Assembly: GCA_026388535.1 (NCBI GenBank)
Contig: JAPLJP010000177.1
Span: forward strand, 1-33,189
DNA: 33,189 nucleotides
Origin: Deltaproteobacteria bacterium
GTDB lineage: Bacteria > Desulfobacterota > Syntrophia > Syntrophales > Smithellaceae
Reading direction: 5' to 3'
A model generated the notes under the pieces. The model saw only the letters and a program-made list of their open reading frames with translations, did no database searches and had not been told where the DNA came from. Below are positions 999-16,084 of the stretch, piece after piece (positions within the stretch are counted from its first letter, which is position 1; every line of letters begins with the position of its first letter). The position numbers were made by a program, and so were the translations under genes.

Positions 999-1982
999 AT
1001 GAAAAAGACATTAGGAATGATGATAGCGGTAATTGTGTTGGTCGTTTTAACCGGGGCTTTTATTACGCCTAAGCCTTCCATCGCAGAGGGAATTGCCAAT
1101 GACGGACGTTTCGTTATCATGGACGACGGGACAATATTGGATACGAAGATGGATCTGATTTGGGCGGCCAGGGACAATGGGAGTAATATAAACTGGTCAG
1201 ATGCCAAATCCTATTGTGAGAATTATCGCGAAGGCGATTACAATGACTGGCGGTTGCCGACATTAGATGAGTTGAAGGGTTTATATGACAGGTCAATCGC
1301 TGGAAACAACGACTTTCATGTAACAAGACTGATAACCCTGACTGGATCTTTTCCGTGGTCATCTGAAACAAGAGGTTCCGAAGCCGCTGTCTACGGATTT
1401 GGTTATGACCGTGGCGTATGGTACTGGGATTCCTTATCACACAAAAGCAGAAATCGGGCGCTTCCAGTGCGGCCTGCTATATTGAAGAAGGTTGCTGTTG
1501 TCGAACCACCTCCACCTCCACCTCCACCTCCACCTCCACCTCCACCTCCGCCTCCACCACCACCTCCACCTCCGCCTCCACCACCGCCACCGCCTCCGCC
1601 ACCTCCGATAGTAATGGAGAAGGTTTCCATCGCGCTTAATATTGAGTTCGATTTCAAAAAATCCGTAATCAGGAAGAAATATCATAACAACATCAAGAAA
1701 GTAGCGGATTTCATGAAGGATTATCCTGAAACTAATGCTATTATAGAAGGTCATACTGATAACGTTGACGTCTTCCACGATCCAAACAACAATATTAAAC
1801 TGTCTCAGGCGCGCGCCGATAGTGTCCGGCAATACCTGATAGACAACTTCGGAATAGATGCGTCCCGTATCATCGCTGTCGGTTATGGACCGACCAGACC
1901 AATTGCCAGCAATGACACCGAAAAAGGGCGGCAGATGAATCGCCGAGTTGAGGCTGTCCTTGAAACAATGAGGGCAAAATAA
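999..1982 (+). CDS. DUF1566 (Lcl)/OmpA-family protein with 34-residue polyproline linker
   Basis: This is an exported 327-residue protein. It has a signal peptide (1 to about 29, cleavage probably after SIA) and a DUF1566/Lcl-type domain (about 35-162) with the typical DWRLPTLDEL motif and a closing RALPVRP. A run of 34 prolines (170-203) follows, then an OmpA C-terminal peptidoglycan-binding domain (about 210-324) with EGHTDN, SQARADSV and NRRVE motifs. OmpA domains of this type bind diaminopimelate in peptidoglycan, so the protein probably anchors to the wall while the Lcl domain projects from a stiff polyproline rod. The ATG at 999 follows AGGAGGAG by 10 bases. The gene stands alone and ends at a strong terminator. 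The polyproline run should make translation depend heavily on elongation factor P. The ligand of the N-terminal domain is unknown. Confidence 0.9.
   Translation: MKKTLGMMIAVIVLVVLTGAFITPKPSIAEGIANDGRFVIMDDGTILDTKMDLIWAARDNGSNINWSDAKSYCENYREGDYNDWRLPTLDELKGLYDRSIAGNNDFHVTRLITLTGSFPWSSETRGSEAAVYGFGYDRGVWYWDSLSHKSRNRALPVRPAILKKVAVVEPPPPPPPPPPPPPPPPPPPPPPPPPPPPPPPPPPIVMEKVSIALNIEFDFKKSVIRKKYHNNIKKVADFMKDYPETNAIIEGHTDNVDVFHDPNNNIKLSQARADSVRQYLIDNFGIDASRIIAVGYGPTRPIASNDTEKGRQMNRRVEAVLETMRAK
1506..1607 (+). repeat. CCN microsatellite encoding 34 prolines
   Basis: The tract is 102 bases of proline codons, mainly alternating CCA CCT units with CCG and CCA variants towards the 3' end. Because the main unit is six bases long, slippage would lengthen or shorten the linker without breaking the frame. 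It is a likely site of length polymorphism and of assembly error. Confidence 0.9.
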
Positions 1983-9227: not shown

Positions 9228-9267
9228 TACAATTCACGTATAAATATTTTTAGTTGAAAGTGTGGCG

Positions 9268-9324
9268 TAGTAACATGCTGCTCAGCCGCCGGCGAAGCCG
9301 GTCGGATGAAGCGGTTGGTTAGCA
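9268..9324 (-). repeat. attC-like recombination hairpin after the lipoprotein gene
   Basis: On the minus strand, four bases after the stop of the lipoprotein gene, GCTAAC opens an imperfect foldback that closes at GTTA (complement of 9271-9274). The core is a stem of CCGACCGGC against GCCGGCGG with loop TTC and one extra unpaired A, which resembles the extrahelical bases of integron attC sites. The closing R-box matches poorly beyond GTTA. Position and shape suggest a gene-cassette attC; the weak consensus keeps confidence low. Confidence 0.4.
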
Positions 9325-9327
9325 GTA

Positions 9328-9987
9328 TTACCGTTTTCTGCTGAAGTATCCTGGGTCAAACAGACTAAGGACATAAACAATTTTACTATCTTCGTGAGAT
9401 ATCTGTTCTTCGTTTTGATCCAATACAGATAAATGTAACGAGTACCATTTAGAGTTGTGAGGAGCTGCAACCCAGTAACTCCATTTCCATGTATTCCATT
9501 GCGGGTTCTTTGCAGGGGATTCCGTCATTTTTAATTGATAGCGAAGAATAAGCTTATTGCTTCCAGGTATGCTAATTTCATCAACATTTCTAATCAAACA
9601 TTTTCCGGAATTTCGCATGTCATCCATCAACTTTTTATAGAACTCTTTAGGGGTGTCTATTGATCCAGTTCCAATATTAACTGTGGCCATATATTGATTA
9701 TTTCTCGCAAAGATTGGAGCTTTTATGCCAGATTCCAATTCCCATTTATCACAAGCAGGAAGATAAAACACAATATCATTGGATGGGCTACCAATCATAA
9801 CATAAGGCTTCGTTTGAGGGTTACTAGAACCTACTACAATGAGTCCGGTTTTAGCATCACCTTCTATATCTTTTCCTGTATATAATATTTTCCCACTTGG
9901 CATCATAGAAGCACAACCAAAAAACAATAGCAGTAATAAAGCAATGGGTATTATAATCTTACCCCCAAAAATTAGATTGTTATTCAT
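9328..9987 (-). CDS. hypothetical lipoprotein, possible integron-type cassette gene
   Basis: This 219-residue protein has a lipoprotein signal: a hydrophobic stretch (about 8-23) and the lipobox LFFGCAS with Cys25 as the lipidated residue. I chose the ATG at 9987 over the in-frame one at 10011 because GAGGAG (9995-10000) lies seven bases upstream of it and inside the longer version. The mature part is soluble and mixed alpha/beta, with a Trp/Tyr-rich C-terminal third (WNTWKWSYWVAAPHNSKWYS). I do not recognise a family. The message is monocistronic. The stop codon is followed almost directly by an attC-like hairpin, and an A+T-rich sequence lies before the start. This is what a captured gene cassette would look like, without an integrase nearby. 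Confidence 0.8.
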   Translation of the reverse strand: MNNNLIFGGKIIIPIALLLLLFFGCASMMPSGKILYTGKDIEGDAKTGLIVVGSSNPQTKPYVMIGSPSNDIVFYLPACDKWELESGIKAPIFARNNQYMATVNIGTGSIDTPKEFYKKLMDDMRNSGKCLIRNVDEISIPGSNKLILRYQLKMTESPAKNPQWNTWKWSYWVAAPHNSKWYSLHLSVLDQNEEQISHEDSKIVYVLSLFDPGYFSRKR

Positions 9988-13217: not shown

Positions 13218-14063
13218 CTAAAAAGTGAAGCTGGCGGAAAATCCTCCGTAAAGAAATGCACTATCCCTATCTGATGGATTAGCCGCGATCTTTAAACCGC
13301 GACCTCTCATTTCGTATCTGGCATCATCACTGAGCGGAAACACGTAAATTATAACCGGAGTGATAGTCAAGTACTTGGTCACCGAAACCGGCAGGGAAAC
13401 AGACACTGTCGCGTCATGAAAGTTATTGAATTTGTCCGCCGTTGCGGCTGAATTGCTGTCATATTTTGCATAAGTTGTCGCGTCTTCGCTTTTCAGATAG
13501 CTTGCCGTTGCCGCCAGTTTCAAACCGATCTTCTCATGCAAAGTAAAAGTATGGGAAACTCCCAGCAGAACATACCACTGATGATAATGATCAATTTCCT
13601 TGTAAACAGTCAGTGTGGGCGCCAGAATTGTATCCAGACCAAGAGTGATAAATAATTCCTGAGAATCAAGCGGATCGGCAGTTCCCGCGTATGGCGCGGC
13701 CAGTGCATAGTATATATAGCCCGCGCCCACTTGTAAAATTCCGAATTTATGTGAATAAAAAAAAGTTAAATCTGTTTCCGTAAAATTGGAAGAATATTTT
13801 TCGTCTCCTGTGCTATAAGGTTTGGTATCCATATTTTCCCAAAAGTTTATCGTAAAACCTTTATAGCCTACTGTCAGCGATGGTTGAATAACAGCGCTTT
13901 GGCGCGTTAATTCCTGTCCGCGCCAGATATAGGCGCTCAAAAAACTTGCGGCCACTTCACCCGTCACCCTCTCCTCCTCAGCGGCGATGGAAGTCCGCGC
14001 GAAACCTAGCAAAACCAGGGCAGTAATAAAAACAACGATTGATTTTCTAAAAATTTCTTTCAT
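13218..14063 (-). CDS. putative outer-membrane beta-barrel protein (TorF-like porin)
   Basis: This 281-residue protein has a signal peptide (1 to about 27, cleavage after SIAA). The rest is built of alternating hydrophobic/polar strands and ends in an aromatic residue (SASFTF), the C-terminal signature of barrels inserted by the Bam complex. An early strand carries AYIWRGQELT, typical of the TorF-family/uncharacterised porin group. No enzymatic motif is visible, so passive transport or a structural role is inferred. GAGGAG precedes the ATG. It is divergent from the citramalate synthase gene, with about 220 bases between its start and that gene's promoter. The family call is moderate; the barrel call is firm. 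Confidence 0.82.
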   Translation of the reverse strand: MKEIFRKSIVVFITALVLLGFARTSIAAEEERVTGEVAASFLSAYIWRGQELTRQSAVIQPSLTVGYKGFTINFWENMDTKPYSTGDEKYSSNFTETDLTFFYSHKFGILQVGAGYIYYALAAPYAGTADPLDSQELFITLGLDTILAPTLTVYKEIDHYHQWYVLLGVSHTFTLHEKIGLKLAATASYLKSEDATTYAKYDSNSAATADKFNNFHDATVSVSLPVSVTKYLTITPVIIYVFPLSDDARYEMRGRGLKIAANPSDRDSAFLYGGFSASFTF

Positions 14064-14283
14064 AACGAATCTCCTCTTTTTTATATTTGCGTTTAATCTT
14101 TGCAGGAGAATATAAGAACAAAAGATATGCCATTTTATATTTCCCCAAACAGATGAGATTTAACAAATCGTAATGTTTATGTATTTCCCGACATGATTGT
14201 TAGCGACGGACGTAAAATGAGAGGACATAATTGTTGGTTTATAAAAAGTTATGGACATAAATGATTGAAGTATTTAATTTCTA

Positions 14284-14312
14284 TTGACAAAGTTTGCCGA
14301 AAAAATTAGTAT
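14284..14312 (+). promoter_or_regulatory. sigma70-type promoter of the isoleucine leader and cimA
   Basis: The -35 TTGACA (14284-14289) and -10 TAGTAT (14307-14312) are separated by exactly 17 bases, a near-consensus promoter. The expected start near 14319 puts the leader-peptide ATG (14338) close to the 5' end of the transcript. The spacing between promoter, leader peptide and terminator is what transcription attenuation requires. Confidence 0.8.
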
Positions 14313-14337
14313 CCTCCAAAAGGTAACAATTGACGCT

Positions 14338-14418
14338 ATGAACACGATCAACATTCAAGAAATAATAATTAGCAACATTATAATTAGCTTCTCCATAGGA
14401 GGCTTGGTCGCGGAATAG
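14338..14418 (+). CDS. isoleucine-rich leader peptide (attenuator) of cimA
   Basis: This is a 26-codon open frame from ATG 14338 to TAG 14416-14418, lying between a strong promoter and an intrinsic terminator. Nine residues are isoleucine (positions 4, 6, 9-11, 14-16 and 20), including two triplets, and Leu23 and Val24 follow. Such leader peptides sense charged tRNA: when Ile-tRNA is scarce the ribosome stalls on the Ile codons, the terminator cannot form and the biosynthetic gene is transcribed. The gene downstream encodes citramalate synthase, which starts the pyruvate route to isoleucine, so sensor and pathway match. AAGG near 14320 is the only SD candidate, about 14 bases from the ATG, somewhat far. 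The frame is too short for standard gene finders. Confidence 0.8.
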   Translation: MNTINIQEIIISNIIISFSIGGLVAE

Positions 14419-14482
14419 TATCAACTCGAAATAAACAAAATTTCAATCCGCTGCCGGGCGATCCCGTCAGCGGATTTTTTTT
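14386..14482 (+). terminator. attenuator: intrinsic terminator with candidate alternative stems
   Basis: The terminator stem pairs AATCCGCTG (14445-14453) with CAGCGGATT (14468-14476), extended by CGGG/CCCG, and runs into eight T (14475-14482), 15 bases before the cimA ATG. Upstream, AGC-TT-CTCC (14386-14394) can pair with GGAGGCT (14398-14404) as a 1:2 hairpin inside the leader frame. The alternative is weaker: GCGGA (14410-14414) can pair with TCCGC (14447-14451), flanked by GG/CC across a small internal loop, which would break the terminator. The terminator is certain; the antiterminator pairing is my inference. Confidence 0.85.
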
Positions 14483-14497
14483 GAAAGTGAGGGGAAA

Positions 14498-16084
14498 ATG
14501 ACAAAAAATAAATTACTGGTTTACGACACAACTTTAAGGGACGGAACACAGGGGGAACAAACAAATTTTTCGGCGGAAGAAAAATTGCGAATCGCCCAGC
14601 GCCTCGATGATGTTCATTTTCACTATATTGAAGGGGGCTGGCCCGGTTCCAATCCCAAAGATATGCGTTTTTTCGAAATGGCCAAAGCCGTTAAATTTAA
14701 AAATTCACGTCTGACCGCATTCGGCAGTACGCGCCGGCCGCATACAAAACCAGAAGCATGTTCTAATTTAAAAGCATTGGTAAAAGCCGGCACTCCTGCC
14801 GCCGCTATTGTCGGGAAATCGTGGGATTTGCACGTAACCGAAATTCTTAAAACCGACTTGAACGAAAATCTCGCCATGATTGCCGATTCTATCGAATATC
14901 TGAAATCGATGGGCAAGGAAGTACTTTTTGACGCCGAACATTTTTTTGATGGCTATAAAAACAATCCCCGTTACGCGACTAAGGTTGTTAAAACAGCACT
15001 TGCTGCCGGAGCGGACATGATTGTTCTTTGCGATACCAACGGCGGTTCTATGCCCCATGAAATCAGTGCCATCGTAAGAAAAATTTCTTCCCATATTTCC
15101 TTAGATATTGTCGCGATTCACGCGCATAATGACGGCGGACTTGCAGTTGCCAATTCCATCGCCGCTGTGCAGGAAGGCGTGAAAATGATTCAGGGCACTA
15201 TAAACGGTTACGGCGAAAGATGCGGAAACGCCGACTTGATAACGCTTATTGCCAATCTGCAATTAAAACTCGGCAAAAATTGTCTGCCGCCGGAATCGAT
15301 CCGTCAACTTACAAGCCTTTCTCATTATGTAAGCGATGTTGCCAATGTCCCGCCGCTTAATTCGCGGCCATTTGTTGGCCGCAGCGCTTTCGCGCACAAA
15401 GGCGGGGTGCATGTCAGCGCTGTGGTCAAAAACTCCACGGCCTATGAGCATATCCAACCGGAGCTTGTCGGCAATCACCGGCGCGTTTTAGTTTCTGATC
15501 TGGCAGGTAAAAGCAACGTTGAATATAAAGCCAAAGAATTGGGCATTGATATCACTAAAGATGACACCCTCAGTAAAAAAATAGTGCATGAAGTGAAGCT
15601 TATGGAAGACCGCGGTTTTCAGTTTGACGCTGCCGACGGTTCGCTTTCTCTGCTGATTAAGAAAACAATCGGTGAATTTATCGAACCATTTAACCTGGAA
15701 TGCTTCAGCGTTATTACTTCACGCACAGAGAATAACCCCTGCCTTTCTCAGGCGACGATAAAAATATCTGTTGCCGGCGAAGAAGAATTAACCGCCGCTG
15801 AAGGAAACGGTCCGGTAAACGCTCTGGACCATGCCTTGCGTAAGGCGCTGACAAAGTTTTATCCGCAAATCAAGGATATGCATCTGGTTGATTTCAAAGT
15901 GCGCACGCTGGAAGGTTCGGAAGGAACAGCCGCCGGTGTCCGGGTGCTTCTGGATTCGACGGATGGCGAAGAATTCTGGAGCACTATCGGTGTTTCCGAA
16001 AATATTATTGAAGCCAGTTGGCAGGCTCTTGTTGACAGTATTGAATATAAACTGAGCAAGGAGGAAAATCTCAACATAAAATAA
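14498..16084 (+). CDS. cimA: (R)-citramalate synthase
   Basis: This 528-residue enzyme of the LeuA/DRE-TIM superfamily condenses pyruvate and acetyl-CoA to citramalate, the first step of the threonine-independent isoleucine pathway. The catalytic start of the barrel is seen as DTTLRDGTQ (10-18), where the Asp and Arg bind metal and substrate. The metal-binding HAHNDGG lies near residue 208, and NGYGERCGNADL follows. The C-terminal third (about 390-520) is the allosteric LeuA-type regulatory domain, containing TAEGNGPVNALDHALRKAL. Length and the IEGGWPGSNPKD motif fit the long citramalate synthase family rather than isopropylmalate synthase. GTGAGGGG directly before the ATG is a good SD. Expression is almost certainly controlled by the upstream isoleucine attenuator, and the enzyme probably by isoleucine feedback. 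Confidence 0.93.
   Translation: MTKNKLLVYDTTLRDGTQGEQTNFSAEEKLRIAQRLDDVHFHYIEGGWPGSNPKDMRFFEMAKAVKFKNSRLTAFGSTRRPHTKPEACSNLKALVKAGTPAAAIVGKSWDLHVTEILKTDLNENLAMIADSIEYLKSMGKEVLFDAEHFFDGYKNNPRYATKVVKTALAAGADMIVLCDTNGGSMPHEISAIVRKISSHISLDIVAIHAHNDGGLAVANSIAAVQEGVKMIQGTINGYGERCGNADLITLIANLQLKLGKNCLPPESIRQLTSLSHYVSDVANVPPLNSRPFVGRSAFAHKGGVHVSAVVKNSTAYEHIQPELVGNHRRVLVSDLAGKSNVEYKAKELGIDITKDDTLSKKIVHEVKLMEDRGFQFDAADGSLSLLIKKTIGEFIEPFNLECFSVITSRTENNPCLSQATIKISVAGEEELTAAEGNGPVNALDHALRKALTKFYPQIKDMHLVDFKVRTLEGSEGTAAGVRVLLDSTDGEEFWSTIGVSENIIEASWQALVDSIEYKLSKEENLNIK

What the first reader, a model, noticed from the sequence alone, without database searches (positions are those of the whole stretch)
14284..14482. 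Isoleucine leader-peptide attenuator in front of citramalate synthase
Promoter TTGACA-N17-TAGTAT, a 26-codon leader with nine Ile codons (two triplets) and a perfect stem plus eight T precede cimA in the correct order. Classical attenuation is well known for ilv, leu, thr, trp and his operons. A leader tuned to isoleucine ahead of cimA would directly link Ile-tRNA charging to the first step of the pyruvate route. I do not know of a described cimA attenuator.
Basis: partly seen in the sequence, partly recalled or inferred. Interest (0 to 1): 0.78.

Follow-up and report, generated by a model that had tools for sequence, protein, structure and literature searches.

The report
Isoleucine-sensing attenuator before citramalate synthase gene
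The stretch before a bacterial isoleucine-making gene (cimA) carries a short isoleucine-rich leader reading frame and a switchable stop signal, conserved across a whole bacterial order, which very probably lets the cell make the enzyme only when charged isoleucine tRNA runs short.

Summary
Between a consensus promoter (14284-14312) and cimA (14498-16084, TIGR00977) lie a 26-codon leader ORF with nine Ile codons (14338-14418) and an intrinsic terminator (14445-14482). Five Ile positions are invariant in 34 close relatives while their codons change synonymously. The missing part, an antiterminator, was found: the leader's 3' end (14402-14414) pairs with the terminator's 5' arm (14447-14459), conserved with GC-to-AU double changes. 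Folding with a ribosome masked at the Ile codons gives the antiterminator; masked at the stop codon it leaves the terminator. Outside the order similar leaders precede cimA-leu-ilv operons, leuA, ilvB and ilvD, and their codon content follows the operon (Ile only for cimA alone; Ile+Leu+Val for cimA-leu-ilv). It is a classical leader-peptide attenuator on a gene for which I found no described one. There are no expression data.

The parts
14284..14312 (+). sigma-70-type promoter TTGACA-N17-TAGTAT
   Evidence: the same TTGACA-N17-TANNNT lies 49-64 nt before the leader ATG in most same-family relatives; 31 of 51 regions score 10 or more of 12 against 2.7% of shuffles
14338..14418 (+). leader ORF, MNTINIQEIIISNIIISFSIGGLVAE, 26 codons plus TAG
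   Evidence: 5-12 Ile in 52 relatives, ORF end 20-44 nt before the terminator; five Ile columns 34/34 with synonymous codon changes. Translation not shown; Shine-Dalgarno weak
14362..14370 (+). first Ile triplet (ATA ATA ATT), presumed sensing codons
   Evidence: two of its three columns are Ile in 34 of 34 same-family leaders, the other in 30
14377..14385 (+). second Ile triplet (ATT ATA ATT), presumed main stall site
   Evidence: all three columns Ile in 34 of 34; distance from last Ile run to terminator 59 +/- 3 nt in 52 sequences
14387..14403 (+). region 1:2 hairpin GCUUCU-CCAUA-GGAGGC (protector/pause hairpin, tentative)
   Evidence: predicted and, in part, in the family consensus; covariation weak and no general enrichment across the order
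14402..14414 (+). antiterminator 5' strand (region 2), GCUUGGUCGCGGA
   Evidence: 12 of 13 pairs with 14447-14459; z below -1.6 in 47 of 52 sequences; double changes GC to AU in 16 and 9 sequences at two pairs
14447..14459 (+). antiterminator 3' strand = 5' arm of terminator (region 3), UCCGCUGCCGGGC
14445..14482 (+). intrinsic terminator: hairpin 14445-14476 (regions 3:4) overlapping T8 at 14475-14482
   Evidence: -20.7 kcal/mol; compensatory changes UA to AU and CG to UA; hairpins of about -16 to -29 kcal/mol with T-runs in the relatives
14498..16084 (+). cimA, citramalate synthase, 528 aa, the regulated gene
   Evidence: TIGR00977 equivalog 745 bits against cut-off 450

Best explanation
A classical ribosome-mediated transcription attenuator that senses charged tRNA-Ile. 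RNA polymerase starts near 14319; a ribosome translates the leader behind it. If Ile-tRNA is scarce, the ribosome stalls in the Ile triplets (14362-14385), covers the start of the 1:2 hairpin, and leaves 14402-14414 free to pair with 14447-14459 as soon as that is transcribed; this antiterminator holds the terminator's 5' arm and transcription continues into cimA. If Ile-tRNA is plentiful the ribosome reaches the stop codon (14416-14418), covers 14402-14414, the terminator 14445-14482 forms, and cimA is not transcribed. Shown here by computation: the parts, their conservation, covariation and spacing. Inferred: translation, stalling, termination in vivo and the response to isoleucine.
For: Anatomy. 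cimA identity. 52 of 54 scorable Syntrophales loci pass the filter for leader plus terminator; 135/155 genomes of the order, 87/92 of the good ones, match a model built from 30 leaders. Ile positions invariant with synonymous codon changes. Antiterminator in 47 of 52 stronger than shuffles and with double changes; terminator with double changes. Ribosome-mask folding: 2:3 probability 1.0 with stall at Ile 11-16, 0.0 with ribosome at stop. Last Ile run to terminator 59 +/- 3 nt. Promoter conserved. Leader content follows operon content: 52 Syntrophales cimA leaders average 8.7 Ile and 0.9 Leu; eight leaders of cimA-leu-ilv operons average 6.0 Ile, 9.1 Leu and 4.1 Val. The own genome's leuA and ilvB have Leu-rich and Leu/Val/Ile-rich leaders before terminators. 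No biosynthetic IlvA over cut-off in 21 relatives, so cimA is probably the main entry to isoleucine.
Against: No expression, Term-seq or ribosome profiling data. The leader's Shine-Dalgarno is weak (AAGG about 14 nt before ATG). The 1:2 protector hairpin is clear only in part of the relatives. At equilibrium the terminator wins even with the stalled ribosome, so the switch depends on co-transcriptional kinetics, as in known attenuators. The shuffle control for covariation cannot exclude relatedness of the sequences, though slid controls are also lower.
Confidence: 0.9

Rival explanations
1. The short ORF encodes a functional hydrophobic small protein, and the terminator is an unrelated constitutive damper of cimA.
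For: The peptide is hydrophobic and conserved over part of its length.
Against: Mainly the Ile positions and the RNA segment that pairs with the terminator are conserved; the rest varies. Ile gives way to Leu/Val runs when leu and ilv genes join the operon. The distance to the terminator is fixed and the ORF end covaries with the terminator arm.
Confidence: 0.03
2. The element is a T-box or other RNA that senses tRNA-Ile or isoleucine directly, without translation.
For: T-boxes control branched-chain genes in Firmicutes, and leuA in Geobacter and Pelobacter (PMC2494555).
Against: No Rfam match at gathering threshold in this region of the window and nothing credible at E up to 1 on 14270-14500. 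The conserved feature is a reading frame of Ile codons with synonymous changes, not a fixed specifier loop.
Confidence: 0.02
3. The leader responds to general slowing of translation or to several branched-chain amino acids, not to isoleucine alone.
For: Operon-type cimA leaders elsewhere hold Ile, Leu and Val runs; the common ancestor may have been multivalent.
Against: In Syntrophales the leader holds on average 8.7 Ile, 0.9 Leu and 1.1 Val; the single Leu and Val of the window's leader lie in the pairing segment at its end.
Confidence: 0.05

Closest known systems
ilvGMEDA / ilvBN leader-peptide attenuators of enterobacteria (named from general knowledge)
   Same: Short leader ORF rich in the codons of the product amino acids, antiterminator and intrinsic terminator before a branched-chain gene.
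   Different: Known ones read branched-chain amino acids together before ilv genes; here Ile alone before cimA, in Desulfobacterota. A sequence relation was not tested beyond Rfam.
leu operon attenuator (Rfam Leu_leader)
   Same: Same mechanism; cimA and leuA are related enzymes with the same logic (first committed enzyme of a branch).
   Different: Leu codons; no Rfam family matched the window element.
Corynebacterium ilvBNC uORF/attenuator (PMC10272879, PMC11857589)
   Same: Leader ORF and terminator before a branched-chain operon outside gamma-proteobacteria.
   Different: Different gene and phylum.
T-box upstream of leuA in Geobacter and Pelobacter (PMC2494555)
   Same: Transcription antitermination by tRNA charging before a branched-chain synthase in delta-proteobacteria.
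   Different: A T-box reads uncharged tRNA directly, without a leader peptide; none was found here.

Membership tests
ribosome-mediated leader-peptide transcription attenuator | short ORF upstream of the gene, rich in codons of the gene's end product | tested here: met
   9 of 26 codons Ile; invariant Ile columns with synonymous changes
ribosome-mediated leader-peptide transcription attenuator | intrinsic terminator between leader ORF and structural gene | tested here: met
   14445-14482, conserved with compensatory changes
ribosome-mediated leader-peptide transcription attenuator | mutually exclusive antiterminator using the terminator's 5' arm | tested here: met
   14402-14414 with 14447-14459, 12 of 13 pairs, 47 of 52 relatives, double changes
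ribosome-mediated leader-peptide transcription attenuator | protector (1:2) hairpin that sequesters region 2 without translation | tested here: inconclusive
   present in the window and part of the close relatives, weak across the order
ribosome-mediated leader-peptide transcription attenuator | control codons at a set distance from the switch so that a stalled ribosome frees region 2 | tested here: met
   59 +/- 3 nt from last Ile run to terminator; masked folding
ribosome-mediated leader-peptide transcription attenuator | read-through depends on leader translation and charging of the cognate tRNA | not testable with these tools
   needs reporter or RNA-seq data
T-box | T-box covariance model match | tested here: not met
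   no match at gathering threshold nor at E up to 1 on 14270-14500
Rfam amino-acid leader families (Leu, Thr, His, Trp) | match to the family model | tested here: not met

The most novel reading that the evidence does not exclude
One ancestral attenuator chassis (CCTGATAATGG / CCGTTATCAGG / terminator) was reused across Desulfobacterota before cimA, leuA, ilvB and ilvD, and its codon runs were retuned to the products of each operon as leu and ilv genes joined or left, giving a natural series for how attenuator specificity evolves.
Probability: 0.55. Interest if true: 0.6.

Novelty: new member of a known kind. Interest (0 to 1): 0.5.

Why it matters
It would be, as far as I could find, the first described attenuator on citramalate synthase, tying the pyruvate route to isoleucine (the likely main route where biosynthetic threonine deaminase is missing) directly to tRNA-Ile charging, in Desulfobacterota of the Syntrophales, where I found nothing on such regulation. 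A 2013 survey of RNA motifs suggested that amino-acid attenuators originated in gamma-proteobacteria with very few transfers (PMC3766115). The matching of leader codons to operon content gives a ready comparative test of how such switches change specificity, and the leader identifies cimA as an isoleucine gene by its regulation alone.

Tried and rejected
T-box and other Rfam families: no match. Plasmid records: no match to the region. Terminator of the upstream gene: rejected, because the neighbour (13218-14063) is divergent and the hairpin has a T-run only on the + strand. The pattern scanner did not list the terminator, probably because its stem/loop rule does not allow the internal mismatch; RNAfold shows it. 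The 1:2 hairpin as an equal third structural element: only weak support, so kept as tentative. One family scan failed for wrong coordinates and was repeated. A first script left minus-strand loci unrotated; corrected. Literature searches gave no cimA attenuator, but most subscription papers are not held, among them a 2004 comparative study of proteobacterial attenuators that I know by name only.

Full report
Observation. The sequence at 14284-14482 is as described: promoter TTGACA-N17-TAGTAT at 14284-14312; leader ORF 14338-14418 (MNTINIQEIIISNIIISFSIGGLVAE) with nine Ile codons (at 14347, 14353, 14362-14370, 14377-14385 and 14395); terminator hairpin 14445-14476 and T8 to 14482; cimA ATG at 14498. 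The stem has one mismatch, a small correction. The upstream neighbour (13218-14063) is on the other strand, so the terminator can only serve this leader. Dinucleotide shuffles of 14312-14445 reached nine Ile in an ATG ORF of 10-45 aa once in 5000, and the leader folds 4.1 sd better than shuffles.

Gene and organism. The product matches TIGR00977 citramalate synthase with 745 bits against a cut-off of 450. Named close relatives of this cimA are Syntrophaceae and other delta-proteobacterial MAGs, so the window most likely comes from Syntrophales (the order name is my inference from these titles). In 21 relatives neither form of biosynthetic threonine deaminase scores over its cut-off (TIGR01127, TIGR01124); seven genomes, the window's own among them, hold a 333-450 aa open frame of this fold at 243-255 bits, possibly a catabolic threonine/serine dehydratase, so a minor threonine route is not excluded.

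Conservation. I took the region before cimA from 55 loci of the order. An automatic filter found, in 52, an Ile-rich leader ORF and a terminator of about -16 to -29 kcal/mol (one search was a first pass). Of the other three, L118 and L121 have the terminator and Ile codons but did not pass the filter, and L022 is cut by its contig end just before the terminator. So 52 of 54 scorable loci pass. A covariance model built from 30 leaders found the element in 135 of 155 genomes of the order, and in 87 of 92 with completeness of at least 90% and low contamination; the model's own training genomes are among these. In 34 leaders of the same family five Ile columns are Ile in 34 of 34 while each is written with ATT, ATC and ATA, which is selection for the amino acid, not for the RNA letters. 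ATA makes up 36% of leader Ile codons and 18% in window genes. The promoter is conserved too.

Switch. 14402-14414 (GCUUGGUCGCGGA, the last leader codons) pairs with 14447-14459 (UCCGCUGCCGGGC, the terminator's 5' arm) in 12 of 13 positions. In 47 of 52 relatives the best duplex of the same two parts is at least 1.6 sd below shuffles, mostly in the same register. On the 44-sequence alignment A2 84.5% of cells pair against 27-64% in slid controls; two pairs change from GC to AU on both sides in 16 and 9 sequences. The terminator has its own double changes. The 1:2 hairpin (14387-14403) is clear in the window but weak over the order. The last Ile run ends 59 +/- 3 nt before the terminator in 52 sequences. 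Folding with the ribosome masked at Ile 11-16, before the 3' arm is made, forms the antiterminator with probability 1.0; with the ribosome at the stop codon it cannot form and the terminator does; without a ribosome the probability is 0.57.

Wider spread. A scan of 395 genomes of the phylum gave 49 with a match. Outside the order those I read lie nearly all before branched-chain genes: cimA, leuA, ilvD and ilvB; one lies before an acyl-CoA dehydrogenase-like gene (L165) and one (G190, L179) before no gene I could recognise. Where cimA opens an operon with leuA, ilvB and usually leuCD, the leader is mixed, for example MNLVHNIIVIISAVGILVSLLLLLLGVIPRPPGLIMT; eight such leaders average 6.0 Ile, 9.1 Leu and 4.1 Val, against 8.7, 0.9 and 1.1 in 52 Syntrophales leaders, where cimA is usually followed by a TsaC-like gene. 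In the window's own genome leuA has the leader MTDIARIQNVVINILPLLLGLALLRLLLKAAYPLFLGIH before a terminator and ilvB has MFLKVLESGIIRILNKVLVLVVIVLTGSAALYL before one. So the codon content of each leader follows the products of its operon. This is strong indirect evidence that the Ile codons are the sensor. Whether all these leaders descend from one element is open: the shared CCGTTATCAGG/CCTGATAACGG is short and palindromic.

Known or new. The mechanism is the textbook leader-peptide attenuator. In the papers held I found no attenuator for cimA; a survey from 2010 and one from 2013 do not mention citramalate in their main text, and the delta-proteobacterial reconstruction of 2004 does not mention branched-chain genes. 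Many subscription papers are missing, so the absence is not proof. I file it as a new member of a known kind: new target gene, new lineage, with a useful comparative series.

Limits. All evidence is sequence-based. Translation of the leader (weak Shine-Dalgarno), stalling, termination and the isoleucine response are inferred.

Noticed in passing
L137 (own genome G000:C164) about 9248-9424, before leuA at 9502: Leucine-rich leader ORF MTDIARIQNVVINILPLLLGLALLRLLLKAAYPLFLGIH followed by a terminator: a likely leuA attenuator in the same genome.
   Followed up: partly
L196 (own genome G000:C73), minus strand about 1647-1490, before ilvB: Mixed Leu/Val/Ile leader MFLKVLESGIIRILNKVLVLVVIVLTGSAALYL followed by a terminator; between it and ilvB lies a further repeat-like stretch of about 250 bases with a second hairpin.
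   Followed up: partly
L165 (G363:C70) about 1432-1628: Leader MNNNYANIIIIIRAIGIALSLLPVIMGIQRKPPDLIM and terminator of the same type before an acyl-CoA dehydrogenase-like gene, a match before a gene outside branched-chain synthesis.
   Followed up: no
L172-L177, L188-L190: cimA-leuA-(leuC-leuD)-ilvB operons led by one Ile+Leu+Val leader of the same architecture, against Ile-only leaders before cimA in Syntrophales.
   Followed up: partly
14338-14418 and relatives: ATA, the rarer Ile codon, is twice as frequent in the leaders as in window genes (36% against 18%).
   Followed up: partly
L112 (G001:C14): A second cimA, 80% identical, with its own leader and terminator in one genome; that genome is listed as 9% contaminated, so it may be foreign sequence.
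   Followed up: no
window 999-1982 (+): OmpA-like protein with a long run of prolines between its two parts.
   Followed up: no
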